A stretch of 6,161 bases of DNA. Origin: Actinomycetes bacterium. GTDB lineage: Bacteria > Actinomycetota > Thermoleophilia > RBG-16-64-13. This document shows, piece by piece, positions 1-6,161 of this stretch. The position numbers and the translations under genes are program-made. The notes beneath the pieces are model-generated. The model searched no databases. It saw nothing but the letters and a program-made list of their open reading frames with translations, and was not told the origin of the DNA. The stretch covers positions 1-6,161 of the forward strand of contig JAKAHF010000162.1 of assembly GCA_021815245.1 (NCBI GenBank), read 5' to 3'. Positions within the stretch are counted from its first letter, which is position 1. Each line of letters starts with the position of its first letter.

Positions 1-3000
1 TAGCCAACACCTACAACATCTGGACGACCACCAACACCGGCGGCACCCAGATCTGGGGTGATGGCAATCTCGCCAACGGGGCGCCTCCCGCGGTTCTGGA
101 CAACCCGGGCTCGACCGACGCCGATGATGTCATCAACGCCGGAACGGTGATCCTGCTCACCAGCGATGTCTACTTGTCGACTCGCCAGAGCGTCGAAAGC
201 GATTTCGACGGTGGTGACAAGATCGCCGCGACGAAGACCATCGCCATCACCCGCTCGAGTTGGGCCGCGGTCTCTCGGACCCTGTTCGCGGGTTGCGTCG
301 AGGTATTCGACACCAACAACTGGGGCACCGACTACCGGGCGCCTGTCGGCACGAACGCGGCCAATAGCTACGAGATGTTCTCGTACGCGGCCCTGTCGAT
401 CATGGCAGGCGAGGACGGAGCCACCATCTCGGTTGACGCCAACAACGATGGAGACTACCTCGACGCGAACGATCTCGCCGGCGTGGCTTTGGCCGAAGGC
501 GAGAGCAGACTCGTCACGGGTATCTATGTCGGGGCTCATGTGGTCTCCACCAGGCCCGTGCAGGTCGACATCTATACCGGCGACACCGGGTCGAACTACG
601 AGAGCCGCGACTCGGCGCTGATTCCCACCAGTTTGTGGGATAGCAGTTACTACACGCCTGTCTCGACCTACAACGTCAGCAGCCAAGCCGGCGACGAGCG
701 AACGACAGTGTGGCTGTACAACCCGGGGTCAAGCGCCATCACCCTCGGGTACCAGCGGCGTGACGCCGTGGGCGCCCTTACCACGAGCACCCTGACGGTC
801 AATGCCAACTCCGTCAACAAGCAGATCCTCGAGAACGGCTCCAACGGAGTCGGCTCCCACTTCTACACGGTCCCGAGCACGGTGACCGCGAACACGAGTA
901 CTTCGAGCACGTCGACCACCAACAGTCTGACCTTCTCGCACACCACACCGGCGGGGTCGAACCGCCTGCTCGTCGTGGGCGTGGCCATCGCCAACGACGG
1001 GGCAACGCAATGCGACGTGAGCAGGGTGACCTTTGCGGGGGTCGATCTCCAGTATGTCGGCCGGGTATCGGCTCCGTCTACCGGGAGCACCACCGCCGAC
1101 GTGCGTCCGCAGACCGAGATATGGGCTCTGGTCAATCCCGCGGCCAGCACGGCGGGCAACGTGGTTGTCACTCTGACGGGGTCGCGTCCCTTTGCGGCCG
1201 GCGCGACGACCTATACCGGCGTTGACGTTTCAGCGGGGCTCAACTCGGCTCTGGGGGAGTATGCAGGCAACTCCGCCAGCAGTGGTACCGACATCAGCGT
1301 GACCGCGTCCACTGATGTTGGAGACGTGCTGTACGACGTTGTGGGAACGTCGAGGTACAGCAACCAGTACCCGGGCGCGTTCACCATCAGCGGCGGCCAG
1401 ACCCGGCTTTGGGGAGATCTGAGAGTCCGCTCCGGCAGCAACCGTCTTCAAGGCGCTGCCGGAACAGAGACAGCAGTGAGCGGAAGCACCACCTCGAGCT
1501 GGACCAGCAACGGCTATCCCTGGGCGATCAGCGGTGTGGTGATCAAGGCCATTCCCGGTTCGTCGTTCTACGCGTATTCGACGACCGACTCGGCGAGCGC
1601 GACGGGGGCCACATACAATCAGGCCTGGGACTGGAGCTACACGATGATCCCGGAGTCGATGCTGACGACCGAGGCTCTCGTGGGCCTTGGGATCGGACGC
1701 GATCCCGACTCTACCGTCAATCTGACCGAGAACGGCAACCCCATCTGGGTCACGCCCGTGGGCAACGGCGACACACCGGCCACGGTGTACTACGATTTTG
1801 ACGCCGATCCTACGACCGGAAGCATGACCGACGCGAGCGGCTATCGCTGCGACGGAGCCCTCTCTCTTAGAGAGCTCGATCAAGCCCGCATCTACGACAC
1901 GATCGACCGCGATCAGACCGGCACGCTGGTCTACACGCTCGATCCCGATGTGAAGCTGGCGGTCGCCTGGGGACAGGATCCCGAGACGGCCAGCGCCAGC
2001 GCGCCCGGTCTCGACGTGGGCACGAGCGTGCCGCCCATGCCTGAGTTCACGGCCGGCAAAGACGGTCTTCTCTATGACGATCCCAGCGTGCCTGGCATGG
2101 AGGGTGACCTCGACGGCGATGGCTACATCAGCGCGGGCGACATCATCGAGTGGCCGATCAACGTTCTCAACGTCAGCCGCCTTCCGGTGCCCGACATCAT
2201 CGTCGAAGACGTGATCCCCACCGACACCACGTATGTGGCGAACAGCACCTACGTGTGCTGGGACACGGATGAAGACGGCCTCTACGAGTCCGAAGTGCTG
2301 CTCGCTGACAACGTGGTCGGGACCGCCTTCCCTCTCGATGAAGGGGGCTTCAACTACGGGACTGCCTACGGATCGCTGCCGGTGGGAGGATCTTTCACCG
2401 TGCGCTTCCGCGTAAGGATCGCGAACCCGGTCAGTTCAGGGACGATCGCAATTCTCAACGATGGGTCGGCAACCGCTTTCGATTGGACCGATCCCGTCGG
2501 CGACAGGGTGTTCCTGCGCGCTCGTCTTGGCGACTTCGTGTGGTGGGATGAGAACGGGGACGGCATCCAGGATGCGACCGAGGGTGGCATGCCCGAGGTG
2601 ACGGTCACCCTTTACGACGGCGAGGGCCATATCGTGCGCAACGTAGACGGCACGCAGATGACCTCTATCACCGACGCGACGGGACTCTATGACTTCAAGG
2701 GCCTCCTGCCGGGATCGTATCGAGTCGAGTTCCTGCTGCCACCCCCGACGGATTTGTCATACACCGAGATCTCGCCCCGCAACGCCACCTCTGACGATCT
2801 CGACAGCGACGCATACCCATCGACCGACGCGACCAACCCATGCCGCACCGATATGTTCACACTGGGCGGCGCGGAGTGGAATCGGACGGTCGATTGCGGC
2901 GTCATACTCATCGTGAATCCCGAATCGACGCTGGCCGTCGTGGATTCCTTCGGCGCGTATGTCTTGGGCGGAGATGTAGTGGTCAACTGGGAGACCTCGA

Positions 3001-5414
3001 GCCAGATCGGCACTGTTGGCTTCTACGTGGAGAAGAAGGTCGGTGACGAATGGGTGGGGGTCGGCAAGCGGTTCATCCCGGCATTGTTCGAATCGCCCAC
3101 CGGTGGCTCTTACAGCGTCGTCGACGGCGACGCTTCACCGGGCCAGTCGCTCACCTATCGTTTGGTGGAGGTGGAGAAGGCCGGCAGCCGGCTCGTCTAC
3201 GGTCCGTACGACGTGGTGGCAGAGGCCCAACTACCCGACACCGAGGCTGCGAGCGTTCTTGCTCGGGGCAACACCATGGCCCGTGTGCCCAAGATGGCCA
3301 TGACTACAGCACAGCATCCCTGGAAGCCGTGGATCTCACCGGTGGAGCCCAGAAACGCCACGCAGATGAAGATCGAGGTGGTCGAGACGGGCCTGTATCG
3401 CATAGACGCATCCGATCTGGTTGAGAAGTTGCACGTCACGCCCGAGATAGCTCAGAACCTCATACGCACCAAGGGAGTCAAGCTTACGAATCGCGGCTCG
3501 ACGGTGGCGTATCTGCAGGCCGCGGACAACTCCTCGCTCTACTTCTTCGGTGAGGCCATCGACAGCATATACACCTCGGCCAACGTCTACTGGCTGTCAC
3601 TCCAGAAGGGCACGATCATGAGTGCCGGCAGTCGGATCGTTCCCAGCGGGGTCTCCGCCAACGACTTCGTGGATAGCGTCCATGTGGAGCAGAATCTCTT
3701 CAGCTACACCGATGGCTTCCACGATCCGGAGGCCGACTTCTGGCTTTGGAACTACCTCTTTGCAGGCGATGCCGGGTACGACTCGCAGACCATCGACGTC
3801 GACGCGCCCGGCGCCATCGAGGGCCAGACCCTTACGGTCTCGCTCATGGGCATGACGACCATGCCACGGGTGAACGAGCATCACGCGGAGGTGCGGCTCA
3901 ACGGGACCCTCCTGGGCGATACTTGGTGGAGCGGGATGGCGGCGCATACGGCGGAGTTCGCGATCCCGGCGGGCGTCCTGCTCGCGGGGGCCAACCAAGT
4001 GGATATCACCGCGGTCCTCGATGCGGATGACGGCTTCAGCGTCGTCGCGATCGATTCGATCGACCTCCGGTATCAACGTTCGGCCACGGCAGTCGATGAC
4101 AGGCTGCTCGTCAACGCCGCGGCGAAGGGGCCGATGGTGGTCGCTGGCCTGAGTTCGACCGATGTATGGGTGTTCGACCTCGCCAATCCGCTGACTCCTA
4201 CTCTGGCGCGTATTGGGAGCAGTGGCGGCGACCCGAGTGGAGCCTGGGTGAAGTTCGGAGCCATGGCCGACACCCGCTACTACGTGACAACCCCCGGCGC
4301 GGCTCTGCGGCCGGTCGCCATCACCGCTGTGGAAGATGCGCCCTTCTCCAAAGCCGGACTACCCGAGATCGACTATGTGGTGATCACCCACCCGGCCCTT
4401 CTGCTGCAAGCCACCGTTCTGGCCGACTACCGCGCCGGCCAGGGTCTGAAGACGATGGTGGTGACCACGGCCCAGATCTACGACTACTTCAACTACGGCA
4501 TCGTCGACCCACACGCGATCCAGGCCTTCACGACCTACGCTCTGAAACGGCCTTCAACCGCGCCCAAGTTCTTGGTGCTGGTCGGCGATGGCAGTTTTGA
4601 CTACAAGGACTACCAAGGCTTCGGTGACTCGCTCGTGCCACCTTTGATGGTCGACACTCCTGAGGGGCTGGCCCCCTCCGACAACCTTCTGGCCGATGTG
4701 ACCGGCAATGACGGCGTGCCGGAATTCGCGATAGGCCGCATACCGGCCGTCTCCGATGCCGATGTCGCAAACGCGTACCTGAAGATCGTGGCGTATGAAG
4801 CCGCCGAGAAGGGAGCCTGGAGCCGTTCGGTGCTGGTCGCGGCGGACAATGAGGATCCCGACGCAGGCGACTTCGCGACCGACAGCGATGCCGTGGCGGC
4901 CCTGCTGCCGGCGTCGTTCGCCGTGACCAAGGCCTACCTCGACGACCTCGATCTGCTGACCGCGCGTACCACCCTGCTCTCGAATTTCGTGGATACGCTT
5001 TGGATCAACTACATAGGGCACTCCGGTATCGATAACTGGGCTCACGAGGGACTACTGACGGCGGCCGATACTCCGGGGATGGCTCTCAGTGCGCGCCTGC
5101 CGTTTGTGACGGCGCTCACGTGTGTGGCCGGACAGTTCGCTCTGCCCGGCGCGGATTGCCTGAGCGAGGCTCTCGTCAAACAGGCCGGCTCCGGTGCGAT
5201 CGCCGTGCTCTCGCCGACCGCCAAGGAGGAGAACGACCAGTCGGTGCGGTTGGGCGAGTTGTTCGTCAGCACGATGTTCGATCCTCCGCGGGGTACGACG
5301 CTCGGCAAGGCCGTCCGGTCGAGCCTGCAGAAGGGTGCCGCCGCTGGACTGCCGAAGTCGCTGCTTGCCACCTACAATCTTCTGGGCGATCCGGCGGTGA
5401 CCGTGAAGTGGTGA
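1..5414 (+). CDS. Giant multidomain surface protein with C-terminal peptidase C25 (gingipain/PorU-like) domain, 5'-partial
   Basis: Probably an exported cysteine endopeptidase carried on a long stack of adhesin-type beta domains. The frame (first full codon at base 3) is open to the left edge. The GTG at 147 is therefore not the start: residues before it (IWGDGNLANGAPP...) continue the same domain. Signal peptide and true start are off-window. With base 3 as residue 1 (residue = codon start/3), 1803 residues are visible: split surface domain 1-680 with an insert at about 308-516, DUF11-like 701-838, SdrD B-like 840-968, FN3-like 981-1076, PorU-like N-terminal region 1122-1455, C25 catalytic domain 1456-1803. 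His1673 (GHSG) and Cys1707 (LTC) fit the C25 dyad. No LPXTG motif, C-terminal membrane helix or type IX sorting domain follows; the chain ends at LLGDPAVTVKW. The stop TGA overlaps the next ATG. The peptidase assignment is strong; substrate and anchoring are unknown. Confidence 0.93.
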   Translation, partial: ANTYNIWTTTNTGGTQIWGDGNLANGAPPAVLDNPGSTDADDVINAGTVILLTSDVYLSTRQSVESDFDGGDKIAATKTIAITRSSWAAVSRTLFAGCVEVFDTNNWGTDYRAPVGTNAANSYEMFSYAALSIMAGEDGATISVDANNDGDYLDANDLAGVALAEGESRLVTGIYVGAHVVSTRPVQVDIYTGDTGSNYESRDSALIPTSLWDSSYYTPVSTYNVSSQAGDERTTVWLYNPGSSAITLGYQRRDAVGALTTSTLTVNANSVNKQILENGSNGVGSHFYTVPSTVTANTSTSSTSTTNSLTFSHTTPAGSNRLLVVGVAIANDGATQCDVSRVTFAGVDLQYVGRVSAPSTGSTTADVRPQTEIWALVNPAASTAGNVVVTLTGSRPFAAGATTYTGVDVSAGLNSALGEYAGNSASSGTDISVTASTDVGDVLYDVVGTSRYSNQYPGAFTISGGQTRLWGDLRVRSGSNRLQGAAGTETAVSGSTTSSWTSNGYPWAISGVVIKAIPGSSFYAYSTTDSASATGATYNQAWDWSYTMIPESMLTTEALVGLGIGRDPDSTVNLTENGNPIWVTPVGNGDTPATVYYDFDADPTTGSMTDASGYRCDGALSLRELDQARIYDTIDRDQTGTLVYTLDPDVKLAVAWGQDPETASASAPGLDVGTSVPPMPEFTAGKDGLLYDDPSVPGMEGDLDGDGYISAGDIIEWPINVLNVSRLPVPDIIVEDVIPTDTTYVANSTYVCWDTDEDGLYESEVLLADNVVGTAFPLDEGGFNYGTAYGSLPVGGSFTVRFRVRIANPVSSGTIAILNDGSATAFDWTDPVGDRVFLRARLGDFVWWDENGDGIQDATEGGMPEVTVTLYDGEGHIVRNVDGTQMTSITDATGLYDFKGLLPGSYRVEFLLPPPTDLSYTEISPRNATSDDLDSDAYPSTDATNPCRTDMFTLGGAEWNRTVDCGVILIVNPESTLAVVDSFGAYVLGGDVVVNWETSSQIGTVGFYVEKKVGDEWVGVGKRFIPALFESPTGGSYSVVDGDASPGQSLTYRLVEVEKAGSRLVYGPYDVVAEAQLPDTEAASVLARGNTMARVPKMAMTTAQHPWKPWISPVEPRNATQMKIEVVETGLYRIDASDLVEKLHVTPEIAQNLIRTKGVKLTNRGSTVAYLQAADNSSLYFFGEAIDSIYTSANVYWLSLQKGTIMSAGSRIVPSGVSANDFVDSVHVEQNLFSYTDGFHDPEADFWLWNYLFAGDAGYDSQTIDVDAPGAIEGQTLTVSLMGMTTMPRVNEHHAEVRLNGTLLGDTWWSGMAAHTAEFAIPAGVLLAGANQVDITAVLDADDGFSVVAIDSIDLRYQRSATAVDDRLLVNAAAKGPMVVAGLSSTDVWVFDLANPLTPTLARIGSSGGDPSGAWVKFGAMADTRYYVTTPGAALRPVAITAVEDAPFSKAGLPEIDYVVITHPALLLQATVLADYRAGQGLKTMVVTTAQIYDYFNYGIVDPHAIQAFTTYALKRPSTAPKFLVLVGDGSFDYKDYQGFGDSLVPPLMVDTPEGLAPSDNLLADVTGNDGVPEFAIGRIPAVSDADVANAYLKIVAYEAAEKGAWSRSVLVAADNEDPDAGDFATDSDAVAALLPASFAVTKAYLDDLDLLTARTTLLSNFVDTLWINYIGHSGIDNWAHEGLLTAADTPGMALSARLPFVTALTCVAGQFALPGADCLSEALVKQAGSGAIAVLSPTAKEENDQSVRLGELFVSTMFDPPRGTTLGKAVRSSLQKGAAAGLPKSLLATYNLLGDPAVTVKW
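3..2045 (+). other. Domain: N-terminal surface beta-domain (IgGFc-binding-like / DUF11-associated), split by an insertion
   Basis: The pattern resembles a large N-terminal region I recall from bacterial DUF11-containing surface proteins: IWGDGN then AGTVILL, FDGGDKIAATKTIAITRSSW (about 201-262), an AGCVEVFDT strand, STRPVQVDIYTGD (about 549-590), YYTPVS (648-665) and YNPGSSAITLGY. After an interruption it resumes with GSSFYAYSTTDSA, WDWSYTMIPE (from 1626), NPIWVTPVG, a VYYDFDAD strand, RIYDTIDRDQTG and LAVAWGQDP. The likely role is cell-surface or extracellular binding, but the ligand is unknown. The family identification comes from recalled motif order, not a search. The beginning of the domain is missing at the left edge. 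Confidence 0.6.
924..1550 (+). other. Domain: inserted beta-sandwich module (about 209 residues)
   Basis: Residues 308-516 read SLTFSHTTPAGSNRLLVVGVAI, then a VTFAGVDLQYVGR strand, EIWALVNPAA, VVVTLTG, AGATTYTGVD, DVLYDVVGT, GGQTRLW, and end in SSWTSNGYPWAISGVVIKA. This resembles a module I recall from secreted bacterial proteins, often in tandem copies: opening with SLTFSHTT, naming a lone partner phrase EIW.LVNP, and closing with WAI.GVVIK. It is preceded by a Ser/Thr/Asn-rich linker (TANTSTSSTSTTN, 885-923). It sits inside the surrounding surface domain rather than between domains, because recognisable pieces of that domain flank it on both sides. Function is unknown; adhesion or carbohydrate binding is only a guess. 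Confidence 0.6.
2103..2516 (+). other. Domain: DUF11-like beta-sandwich with a leading EF-hand/dockerin-type calcium loop
   Basis: The segment opens with DLDGDGYISAGD (2106-2141), which has Asp at loop positions 1, 3, 5 and 12, Gly at 6 and Ser at 9, as in a canonical calcium loop. The DUF11-type pattern follows: IIEWPINVLNVSRLPVPDIIVEDVIPTDTTYVANST, then a second acidic stretch DTDEDGLYES, PVGGSFTVRFRVRIANP and ILNDGSATAFD. DUF11 domains are stalk-like repeats of bacterial and archaeal surface proteins. Only one copy is present. The loop before it resembles the DxDGDG..SxGD lead-in common to this arrangement and probably rigidifies the junction when calcium is bound. Confidence 0.72.
2520..2906 (+). 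other. Domain: SdrD B-like calcium-binding stalk domain
   Basis: ARLGDFVWWDENGDGIQDATEGGMPEVTVTLYD is the classic SdrD B-domain opening. WDENGDGIQDATE supplies an EF-hand-like calcium loop (2547-2582; Asp1, Asn3, Asp5, Asp9, Glu12). The rest follows the family: TDATGLYDFKGLLPGSYRVEF, then a SPRNATSDDLDSDA acidic loop and a closing strand TVDCGVI. In staphylococcal Sdr proteins such domains form calcium-stiffened rods that project the business end of the protein from the cell. Here a single copy lies between the DUF11-like domain and the peptidase half, consistent with a spacer. Two cysteines, in NPCRTD and VDCGV, could form a disulfide. Confidence 0.85.
2943..3230 (+). other. Domain: FN3-like beta-sandwich preceding the peptidase
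   Basis: DSFGAYVLGGDVVVNWETSSQIGTVGFYVEKKVGDEWVGVG...GGSYSVVDGDASPGQSLTYRLVEVEKAGSRLVYGPYDVVAEA matches the frequent W.TSSE.GT.GF pattern of secreted-protein fibronectin-III-like modules, with the closing YRLVEVE..G.R..YGP strand. This module commonly directly precedes C25-type peptidase regions and is probably structural. A roughly 45-residue low-complexity Ala/Met/Pro-containing linker (about 3231-3365) connects it to the PorU-like region and could be a processing site, but nothing in it proves that. Confidence 0.65.
3366..4367 (+). other. Domain: PorU/gingipain-type N-terminal region with jelly-roll module
   Basis: MKIEVVETGLYRIDASDLVEK resembles the propeptide-like start of PorU-related peptidases (K..V...GVYRIT..DL). 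It is followed by a G..L.N.G strand set, SLYFFGEAIDSIYTSANVYWLS (the FYG...YT..N.YWL motif) and a jelly-roll-like section with EVRLNGTLLGDTWWSGMAAHTAEFAIPAGVLLAGANQVDITAV (about 3885-4020). The segment leads straight into the catalytic domain through RPVAITAVEDAPFSKAG. In characterised C25 enzymes the N-terminal region can act as an inhibitory prodomain and is cleaved off. Whether that happens here is not shown by the sequence. Confidence 0.7.
4368..5411 (+). other. Domain: peptidase C25 catalytic domain (gingipain clan)
   Basis: The order of motifs is that of family C25: IDYVVITHPALLLQATVLADYRAGQGLKT, IYDYFNYGIVDPHAIQAF, FLVLVGDGSFDYKDY (GDGS from 4584), APSDN (4671-4685), FAIGRIPAVSDADV (from 4725), VLVAADNEDPDAGDF, WINYIGHSG with the catalytic His codon at 5019-5021, and VTALTCVAGQF with the nucleophile Cys codon at 5121-5123. 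His and Cys are 34 residues apart, close to the spacing in gingipain R (His211/Cys244). SGAIAVLSPTA and LLGDPAV (5379-5399) complete the fold. All key residues are intact, so an active cysteine peptidase is expected. P1 preference cannot be read from the sequence by eye. Confidence 0.9.
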
Positions 5415-5704
5415 TGCTCAGCAGAAAAGCCGATGTCGTGCAACGCGAGGTCGCGGGAGAGGTGTTCCTTGTACCCATCAGGGGACACCTGGCCGACCTG
5501 CAGGAGTTGTTCGTGCTCAACGAGACGGGCAGTTGGATCTGGGACCGTCTGGCCCAGTCGGGTTGCGCGATCAGCGAGCTCGTCGGCGACATGGTGGCGG
5601 AGTTCGACATCGACGAAGACACCGCCCGGCGTGACGTCGAGACCTTCGCTCAACAGTTGGTCGAGTCGGGACTCGGCCAGATGACATCGAAGAGCGAGTC
5701 GTAG
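5414..5704 (+). CDS. PqqD-like peptide chaperone (RiPP recognition element)
   Basis: A 96-residue protein of the PqqD family, a winged-helix-like fold that binds the leader of a precursor peptide and presents it to a radical SAM partner in the cytoplasm. The sequence shows the family layout: two N-terminal strands (VVQREVAGEVFLVPI), the signature ELFVLNETGSWIWDRL (residues 31-46), a SELVGDMVAEFDIDEDTARRDV helix pair and the last helix FAQQLVESGLGQM. Length fits the family. The ATG at 5414 is preferred because its A is the last base of the upstream TGA (TGATG), indicating coupled translation. In-frame GTG codons at 5408 and 5411 are alternatives adding two or one residues. No strong Shine-Dalgarno is visible. 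The stop TAG overlaps the GTG of the radical SAM gene, its presumed partner. It is not proposed to be true PqqD of PQQ synthesis, since no pqq genes are visible. Confidence 0.88.
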   Translation: MLSRKADVVQREVAGEVFLVPIRGHLADLQELFVLNETGSWIWDRLAQSGCAISELVGDMVAEFDIDEDTARRDVETFAQQLVESGLGQMTSKSES

Positions 5705-6161
5705 TGCCCTGCTCTGCCGGCATCGAGTTCGGTTCGTCCGCATACCTGCGGAGCTTCTTCGAGCGCGTCGCTCAGGAGCGGCTGCCCGTTTCGGGCGGAT
5801 TCGACCTGACGAGCCGGTGCAACTTCCGATGCCGGCACTGCTATCTGGGCCACATGACAGGCCGGTCGCCTCGCGACTTGGGCGAACTGACCACCGGTGA
5901 GGCCGTCGACCTGATCCGCCAGGCGGCCGATGCCGGTTGCCTGCTGCTTCTACTTACCGGCGGCGAGCCTCTGCTCCGCACCGACTTTCTCGACATCTAC
6001 CTGGCGGCCAAGGGCATGGGACTGCTCATAACGGGGTTCACCAACGGCAGTCTGATCGACCAGGCGCATATGGACGTCTTCGCCGAGTACCCGCCGCACG
6101 AAGTGGAGATCAGCCTCTACGGCATGAGCGAGGACACCTACGAGAGAGTCACCGGCTCACG
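5704..6161 (+). CDS. Radical SAM peptide maturase, SPASM-type (3'-partial)
   Basis: The first 152 residues of a radical SAM enzyme; the gene runs off the right edge. Residues 39-46 are C-NFR-C-RH-C, the CxxxCxxC site binding the [4Fe-4S] cluster that cleaves S-adenosylmethionine. TGGEP (85-89) contacts the SAM amino group. FTNGSLI (112-118) and VEISLYGMSEDTYERVTG (134-151) match the core of SPASM-type peptide-modifying enzymes. The SPASM cysteines themselves would be in the missing C-terminal half. The GTG at 5704 is chosen because it overlaps the preceding TAG (TAGTG) and the first ATG (5854) falls after the cluster cysteines. The adjacent PqqD-like gene supports a role in modifying a ribosomal peptide, although tRNA, heme or other radical SAM functions with the same core cannot be fully excluded. 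The reaction type is unknown. Confidence 0.9.
   Translation, partial: MPCSAGIEFGSSAYLRSFFERVAQERLPVSGGFDLTSRCNFRCRHCYLGHMTGRSPRDLGELTTGEAVDLIRQAADAGCLLLLLTGGEPLLRTDFLDIYLAAKGMGLLITGFTNGSLIDQAHMDVFAEYPPHEVEISLYGMSEDTYERVTGS

What the first reader, a model, noticed from the sequence alone, without database searches (positions are those of the whole stretch)
4368..6161. C25 cysteine peptidase, PqqD-like chaperone and radical SAM maturase in one coupled unit
Seen: a complete C25 domain (His1673/Cys1707) ends at 5414, the PqqD-like ORF starts on that same base, and the radical SAM ORF starts on the last base of the PqqD-like stop. Known: PqqD/RRE plus radical SAM-SPASM pairs modify ribosomal peptides, and such clusters usually carry a dedicated peptidase, but I do not recall one built into a huge surface protein of the gingipain/PorU clan. 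Inference: this may be an undescribed peptide-modification or surface-display system in which the C25 protein cleaves, anchors, or is itself the target of, the modified product. It could also be a local coincidence.
Basis: partly seen in the sequence, partly recalled or inferred. Interest (0 to 1): 0.72.

Follow-up and report, generated by a model that had tools for sequence, protein, structure and literature searches.

The report
Surface protease heading peptide-modifying operon
In some uncultured bacteria a huge secreted protease gene heads a conserved gene set that appears to build a small chemically modified peptide, a pairing we did not find described and whose purpose is still unknown.

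Summary
Observation confirmed: a complete C25 domain (His1673/Cys1707) ends a giant protein; its gene overlaps a PqqD-like gene, which overlaps a radical SAM gene cut off by the window end. The link is not chance. Relatives show a recurrent operon: C25, PqqD, radical SAM-SPASM, a precursor peptide, an HprK-like kinase and usually an archaeal-type signal peptidase. One radical-SAM clade holds 26 rows: 22 have C25 upstream on the same strand, three have it elsewhere in the genome, in one none was found. Precursors share YxxP and, mostly, (E/D)EVLAxGCK, three Cys and a terminal Ser. This is a RiPP-type cassette resembling the LPP family (PMC13381572) with two additions: a SPASM maturase and a PorU-like secreted peptidase. 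C25 most likely acts outside the cell on the exported peptide; that step is inferred. Limits: cassettes with EEAVLxxCK precursors showed no C25; my out-of-sample prediction from PqqD score failed (C25 in 1 of 5); the precursor was seen only in relatives, because the window ends before its place. New variant of a known kind.

The parts
3..5414 (+). Giant C25 protein, 5' end outside the window (full protein P0099 is 2008 aa in the protein database)
2523..2900 (+). SdrD_B-like domain (PF17210), residues 841-966
   Evidence: 84.7 bits, cut-off 29.7
3330..4373 (+). Region before the catalytic domain, residues 1110-1457, modelled together with it; PorU-like as a whole
4374..5402 (+). Peptidase C25 catalytic domain, residues 1458-1800; His1673 at 5019-5021, Cys1707 at 5121-5123
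5412..5416 (+). TGATG: stop of C25 overlaps start of the PqqD-like gene
5414..5704 (+). PqqD-like peptide chaperone (RRE type), 96 aa
   Evidence: relatives
5702..5706 (+). TAGTG: stop of PqqD overlaps start of the radical SAM gene
5704..6161 (+). Radical SAM enzyme, first 152 codons; CxxxCxxC at 5818-5841; complete relatives have a seven-Cys SPASM-type C terminus
   Evidence: relatives

Best explanation
The window holds the 5' part of a RiPP operon. [quoted passage not shown] Inferred mechanism: the PqqD-like protein binds the YxxP leader; the radical SAM-SPASM enzyme installs cross-links, most likely thioethers from the three conserved Cys; the HprK-like kinase phosphorylates the peptide, plausibly at the conserved C-terminal Ser; the signal peptidase removes the leader where it is present. 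The giant C25 protein is encoded in the same operon but in relatives has a Sec-like N-terminal signal, so it works outside the cytoplasm. There it most likely processes or fixes the exported peptide by peptide-bond chemistry at Cys1707. I put the RiPP-operon part at about 0.9 and the C25-acts-on-the-peptide part at about 0.5.
For: Order C25-PqqD-radical SAM-precursor-HprK in relatives; C25 upstream on the same strand of PqqD in 23 of 63 annotated loci and in 22 of 26 rows of one radical-SAM clade, support 90/92. Co-occurrence over 241 genomes: PqqD in 38, C25 in 30, both in 23, Fisher p 2.4e-16, not corrected for kinship. Precursors: 24 of 24 have exactly two Cys after the leader Cys, 23 of 24 end in Ser; strict leader length 21 of 21, identity 0.64 in the leader against 0.24 in the middle. 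SPASM-type Cys pattern in 25 of 25 complete radical SAM relatives. Catalytic His and Cys in 22 of 22 C25 rows. Signal-like N termini by eye in 10 of 12 C25 ORFs with visible 5' end. C25 proteins of other branches also lie in such cassettes (L104, L112, L158; L138). LPP precedent for RRE, kinase and signal peptidase (PMC13381572).
Against: The window's own precursor, kinase and SPASM domain are not visible, and its contig was not among the 120 listed precursor hits. No exporter gene is shared by three or more of 22 loci, so delivery of the peptide to an outside C25 is unproved. Lys after the first Cys, a possible gingipain-like site, is equally present in cassettes without C25. Cassettes with EEAVLxxCK precursors showed no C25 in the stretches read. 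L098 keeps the cassette without a detected C25. My prediction for PqqD matches of at least 78 bits elsewhere in the phylum failed: C25 in 1 of 5. In an enlarged quick tree the clade is not one supported group.
Confidence: 0.55

Rival explanations
1. The peptide serves the C25 protein: it is an inhibitor, activator or bound cargo of the giant surface protein, and C25 does not process it.
For: C25 comes first in the operon, and in three of the four exceptions in the clade C25 is kept elsewhere in the genome. The catalytic pair is conserved in 22 of 22 rows.
Against: No precursor-like motif in 21 C25 ORFs scanned. EEAVLxxCK cassettes make a similar peptide with no C25 found nearby.
Confidence: 0.2
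2. C25 is the dedicated leader peptidase of the pathway, cutting at or near the conserved Cys-Lys.
For: Cys-Lys in 22 of 24 precursors of the clade; gingipains cut after Arg or Lys (recalled). L001, L002, L034, L086 and L101 show no signal peptidase gene next to the cassette.
Against: The same Cys-Lys occurs in cassettes without C25. A signal peptidase is present in 17 of 25 loci of the clade (in L053 weak, 19 bits against TIGR02228), and its relative is the leader peptidase of LPP (PMC13381572). C25 has an export-type N terminus.
Confidence: 0.12
3. C25 and the cassette are neighbours by inheritance only, with no shared function: an old operon kept together in one lineage.
For: Most C25-adjacent rows fall in one radical-SAM clade. 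In the phylum-wide sample 14 of 15 new loci had no C25 in the stretch read, two of them (L160, L163) with under 2 kb upstream.
Against: The adjacency is kept at about 35% C25 identity and in two distant groups (class of G001, class of G400). C25 proteins of at least two further branches lie in such cassettes. The genes overlap in the window.
Confidence: 0.1

Closest known systems
LPP (linear polyphosphorylated peptide) RiPPs of Bacillota, Popov et al. 2026, PMC13381572
   Same: Discrete RRE, HprK-like kinase, archaeal-type signal peptidase I, YxxP leader; a PF14907 nucleotidyltransferase in a few loci
   Different: Has a radical SAM-SPASM enzyme and a C25 protein, for which a term search of that paper found nothing; different leader consensus after YxxP; no shared exporter found; not Bacillota
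Paeninodin-like phosphorylated lasso peptides
   Same: RRE and HprK-like kinase; C-terminal Ser as possible phosphosite (paeninodin site recalled; the paper is not held)
   Different: Radical SAM enzyme in the place of a lasso cyclase; YxxP, not WxxP, leader
Sactipeptide/ranthipeptide clusters
   Same: SPASM-type radical SAM with Cys-bearing precursor; StsB, AlbA, SkfB and PapB models among the matches
   Different: All far below the curated cut-offs; chemistry untested; kinase and C25 are additional
NCBIfam SynChlorMet (Scm) cassette
   Same: PqqD-like, HprK-like and radical SAM members match ScmD, ScmC, ScmE and ScmF weakly
   Different: All far below cut-off; one radical SAM gene in the main type; C25 present; precursor matches no NCBIfam model
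PorU, sortase of the type IX secretion system
   Same: Best match in fold (6za2, E 1e-33) and in solved-structure sequence (3e-16) to the last 694 residues
   Different: 202 bits against a cut-off of 420 for the PorU model; C25 is the last domain; no type IX translocon detected, but without a working control
Gingipains RgpB and Kgp
   Same: C25 fold and catalytic pair
   Different: No domain after C25 in the main type; weaker match than PorU

Membership tests
RiPP biosynthetic cluster | Short precursor ORF with conserved leader and variable core beside modifying enzymes | tested here: met
   In relatives, 24 precursors of the clade; not visible in the window itself
RiPP biosynthetic cluster | Peptide is modified by the encoded enzymes | not testable with these tools
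   Needs expression and mass spectrometry
LPP | Discrete RRE, HprK-like kinase and archaeal-type signal peptidase together | tested here: met
   17 of 25 clade loci have all three; TIGR02228 57.3 bits against cut-off 51.85 in L099; not seen beside L001, L002, L034, L086, L101
LPP | Leader consensus YxxPxVLxHQxIxFETxxS | tested here: not met
   Only YxxP is shared
LPP | NTP transferase and MsbA-like exporter | tested here: inconclusive
   PF14907-type gene in 4 of 22 loci; no exporter cluster in three or more loci, and the Pfam tally shows only 25 of 111 families
LPP | RRE falls in the LPP clade of the RRE tree | not tested
   No published RRE set was aligned
Radical SAM-SPASM maturase | CxxxCxxC plus seven further conserved Cys at the C terminus | tested here: met
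   25 of 25 relatives; the window shows only CxxxCxxC
Sactipeptide or ranthipeptide | Thioether cross-links | not testable with these tools
   Three Cys per precursor in 24 of 24; no chemistry
SynChlorMet cassette | Members above the NCBIfam cut-offs for ScmC-ScmF | tested here: not met
   Best ScmD 29.7 bits against 100; ScmE 88 against 400
PorU (type IX sortase) | Above the NF033707 cut-off | tested here: not met
   202 against 420 bits
PorU (type IX sortase) | Type IX translocon in the genome | tested here: inconclusive
   SprA_N in 0 of 25 genomes, but the control search rang in none either
Peptidase C25 | C25 domain with catalytic His and Cys | tested here: met
   PF01364 238 bits against cut-off 23; His and Cys in 22 of 22 rows

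The most novel reading that the evidence does not exclude
A PorU-like C25 enzyme acts as a sortase for a ribosomal peptide: after cross-linking, phosphorylation and export, it cleaves the peptide near the leader/core border and ligates it onto the giant surface protein or another envelope acceptor, so that the bacterium wears a modified peptide on its surface.
Probability: 0.12. Interest if true: 0.88.

Novelty: new variant of a known kind. Interest (0 to 1): 0.62.

Why it matters
It would be a RiPP cassette whose partner is a giant exported protease of the gingipain/PorU clan. It gives C25 proteins found far from Bacteroidota a testable role, extends the LPP-like logic of RRE, kinase and signal peptidase to radical SAM chemistry and to other phyla, and supplies a recurrent operon with an obvious peptide substrate on which the peptidase can be assayed.

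Tried and rejected
Chance adjacency: rejected by genome-level co-occurrence and tree. C25 as the PqqD target: no precursor motif in 21 C25 ORFs. Cys-Lys as a C25-specific cleavage mark: rejected, since it is also in cassettes without C25. Lipobox reading of LAxGC: rejected, because acidic residues and no hydrophobic core precede it (read). PqqD bit score as predictor of C25: failed out of sample, 1 of 5. C25 alone: in the class of G400, 7 of 30 C25-bearing genomes have no PqqD match; of these G561 is cut at a contig edge and falls inside a linked branch, G625 lies in another branch, and five belong to the ~840-aa branch. Window's own precursor: not among the 120 listed of 136 hits. Phylum of G001: 5 of 326 genomes with a match at E<=1e-15; two are C25-cassette genomes already known (G001, G011), two more (G013, G031) were already read and had no C25, and the fifth (G1115) was not read. 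Congruence of C25 and radical SAM distances (Mantel r 0.77, 18 loci, 0 of 5000 permutations) does not separate co-evolution from shared ancestry.

Dropped rows: C25 rows under 350 aa; database C25 hits were a part (63 rows); 61 of 67 neighbour genes went into the Pfam tally; L087 (precursor cut by the contig end) left out of precursor counts. The leader/core pattern failed and was corrected. Signal peptides were judged by eye from a hydropathy scan.
Full report
What is in the window. ORF 3-5414 ends in a complete C25 domain, followed with one-base overlaps by a 96-aa PqqD-like ORF (5414-5704) and a radical SAM ORF (5704 to the window end, 152 codons). His1673 and Cys1707 are correct. In the protein database the full C25 protein (P0099, 2008 aa) and the PqqD protein are recorded with a contig of 8205 bases. 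The database gave 97 PqqD relatives and 151 C25 relatives (120 listed); nine contig lengths, the window's own included, occur in both lists, an indirect first hint of linkage.

Relatives. The genome-contig scan with 35 PqqD proteins found three loci: L001 (Actinobacteria bacterium RBG_16_64_13), L002 (Deltaproteobacteria bacterium) and L003 (Clostridia). In the class of L001's genome, 36 of 399 genomes have a PqqD match at E<=1e-8 and 4 of 399 have C25 at E<=1e-20; the three with PqqD E<1e-30 are the three with the strongest C25. In one of them, G011, C25 appears split between two contigs. In the class of L002's genome, PqqD is in 38 of 241, C25 in 30 of 241, both in 23, Fisher p 2.4e-16, not corrected for kinship.

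Gene order. I annotated 63 loci with profiles built here. C25 is upstream of PqqD on the same strand in 23 of 63. The usual order there is C25, PqqD, radical SAM, precursor, HprK-like kinase and, in most, a signal peptidase. L091 has the precursor between C25 and PqqD; L104 and L112 show no radical SAM gene. Of 25 loci in the clade described next, 22 show the kinase (the other three end there) and 17 the signal peptidase; some of the profile scores are high by construction, since these loci built the profiles. The signal peptidase passes the TIGR02228 cut-off in L099 (57.3 against 51.85) and occurs also in cassettes without C25. No NCBIfam cut-off is met by the PqqD, radical SAM and kinase proteins tested.

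Tree. The radical SAM tree (49 rows) has a 26-row clade (90/92, short of the starred level) with all 22 C25-labelled rows, window included, and four without: L087 and L089 have C25 on another contig, L090 has it on the same contig on the other strand, and L098 (G506) has none at E<=1e-15. Adding 21 rows in a quick tree weakens the clade: 22 of 23 C25 rows lie outside a starred 41-row group, together with seven rows without C25. The C25 tree has two main sides. The main linked C25 proteins lie on one side; L104 and L112, and by best match L158, belong to a tailed branch on the other, and L138 (PKD tail; order radical SAM, HprK, C25, signal peptidase, PqqD) to a further one. So C25 genes of at least three branches sit in such cassettes, which argues for a functional tie.

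Limits of the tie. I wrote down a prediction before testing: PqqD matches of at least 78 bits in further genomes should have C25 upstream. It failed: one of five (L158), and none of ten weaker matches, of which L160 and L163 have under 2 kb upstream. Cassettes with EEAVLxxCK-type precursors had no C25 in the stretches read, although L035, L040 and L110 have only 1.6-4.1 kb upstream. The tie is therefore a property of particular cassette lineages.

Precursors. In 24 loci of the clade the peptide reads YxxP, then mostly (E/D)EVLAxGCK, then a variable stretch, two Cys and a C-terminal Ser (23 of 24; L098 ends in Ile). Lys follows the first Cys in 22 of 24. Tyr-to-Cys length is 21 in 21 of 21 that fit the strict pattern; mean identity is 0.64 there against 0.24 in the middle. 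A profile search gave 136 database relatives at E<=1; none of the 120 listed has a Pfam domain, and 119 of these 120 end in Ser. The search words favour the leader motif, so its presence in all 120 is no independent evidence; the terminal Ser is less affected.

C25 protein. Signal-like N termini are seen by eye in 10 of 12 C25 ORFs whose 5' end is visible (no predictor was run). The protein ends within nine residues of the C25 domain end in 20 of 22 rows. The model of residues 1110-1803 (28-row alignment, pLDDT 93.2, pTM 0.91) matches PorU best (6za2, E 1e-33, TM-score 0.58 by query), then gingipains; PorU is also the best sequence match (3e-16). It scores 202 against the PorU model's cut-off of 420, so I call it PorU-like, not PorU. 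A type IX translocon gene was not found in 25 genomes, but no control genome rang.

Literature. Popov et al. 2026 (PMC13381572; outline, sections 6 and 12 in full, other passages by term search) describe LPP: RRE, HprK-like kinase, archaeal-type signal peptidase as leader peptidase, nucleotidyltransferase, exporter and YxxP leaders in Bacillota. The present cassette shares much of that core and adds radical SAM and C25. Searches joining C25, gingipain or PorU with radical SAM, RiPP, ribosomally synthesized or Desulfo- gave nothing describing such a pairing, judged from listings and, for PMC5682303, passages. PqqD with HPr kinase, radical SAM and signal peptidase (three of four terms) gave none; SynChlorMet gave none; the search with HPr kinase and lasso peptide led to one passage on lasso clusters (PMC4289311). 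Only open-licence papers are held, so absence there is weak.

Mechanism. Shown: gene content, order, conservation and catalytic residues. Inferred from families: leader binding by PqqD, SPASM chemistry on Cys, phosphorylation, signal-peptidase cleavage. Least certain is what C25 does. The export-type N terminus of its relatives and the conserved active site favour action on the exported peptide; the lack of a shared exporter gene and the relatives without C25 call for caution.

Noticed in passing
L138 (G414:C51) 2298-12366: A second cassette in the same genome with order radical SAM, HprK-like, C25 with PKD tail, signal peptidase, PqqD-like.
   Followed up: partly
L104 8785-10349, L112 8748-10152: Cassettes with tailed C25, PqqD, a CAVLGFCK-type precursor and kinase but no radical SAM gene seen.
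   Followed up: partly
L134-L137, L139-L144: A separate ~840-aa C25 subfamily without a PqqD cassette nearby; a protein kinase/AAA_16 protein is a neighbour in 7 loci and a LamG-type protein in 5.
   Followed up: partly
L145 (G544:C4), L146 (G599:C80): Tandem giant C25 genes interspersed with small response-regulator-type genes.
   Followed up: no
L091, L094, L097: FeoB and a Fur/FeoA-type gene downstream of the cassette in three loci.
   Followed up: no
L040 5994-6662, L041 9546-10050: Two precursor copies in one cassette of the type without C25.
   Followed up: no
L086 14867-16345: A second PqqD/radical SAM pair a few kilobases downstream of the C25 cassette.
   Followed up: no
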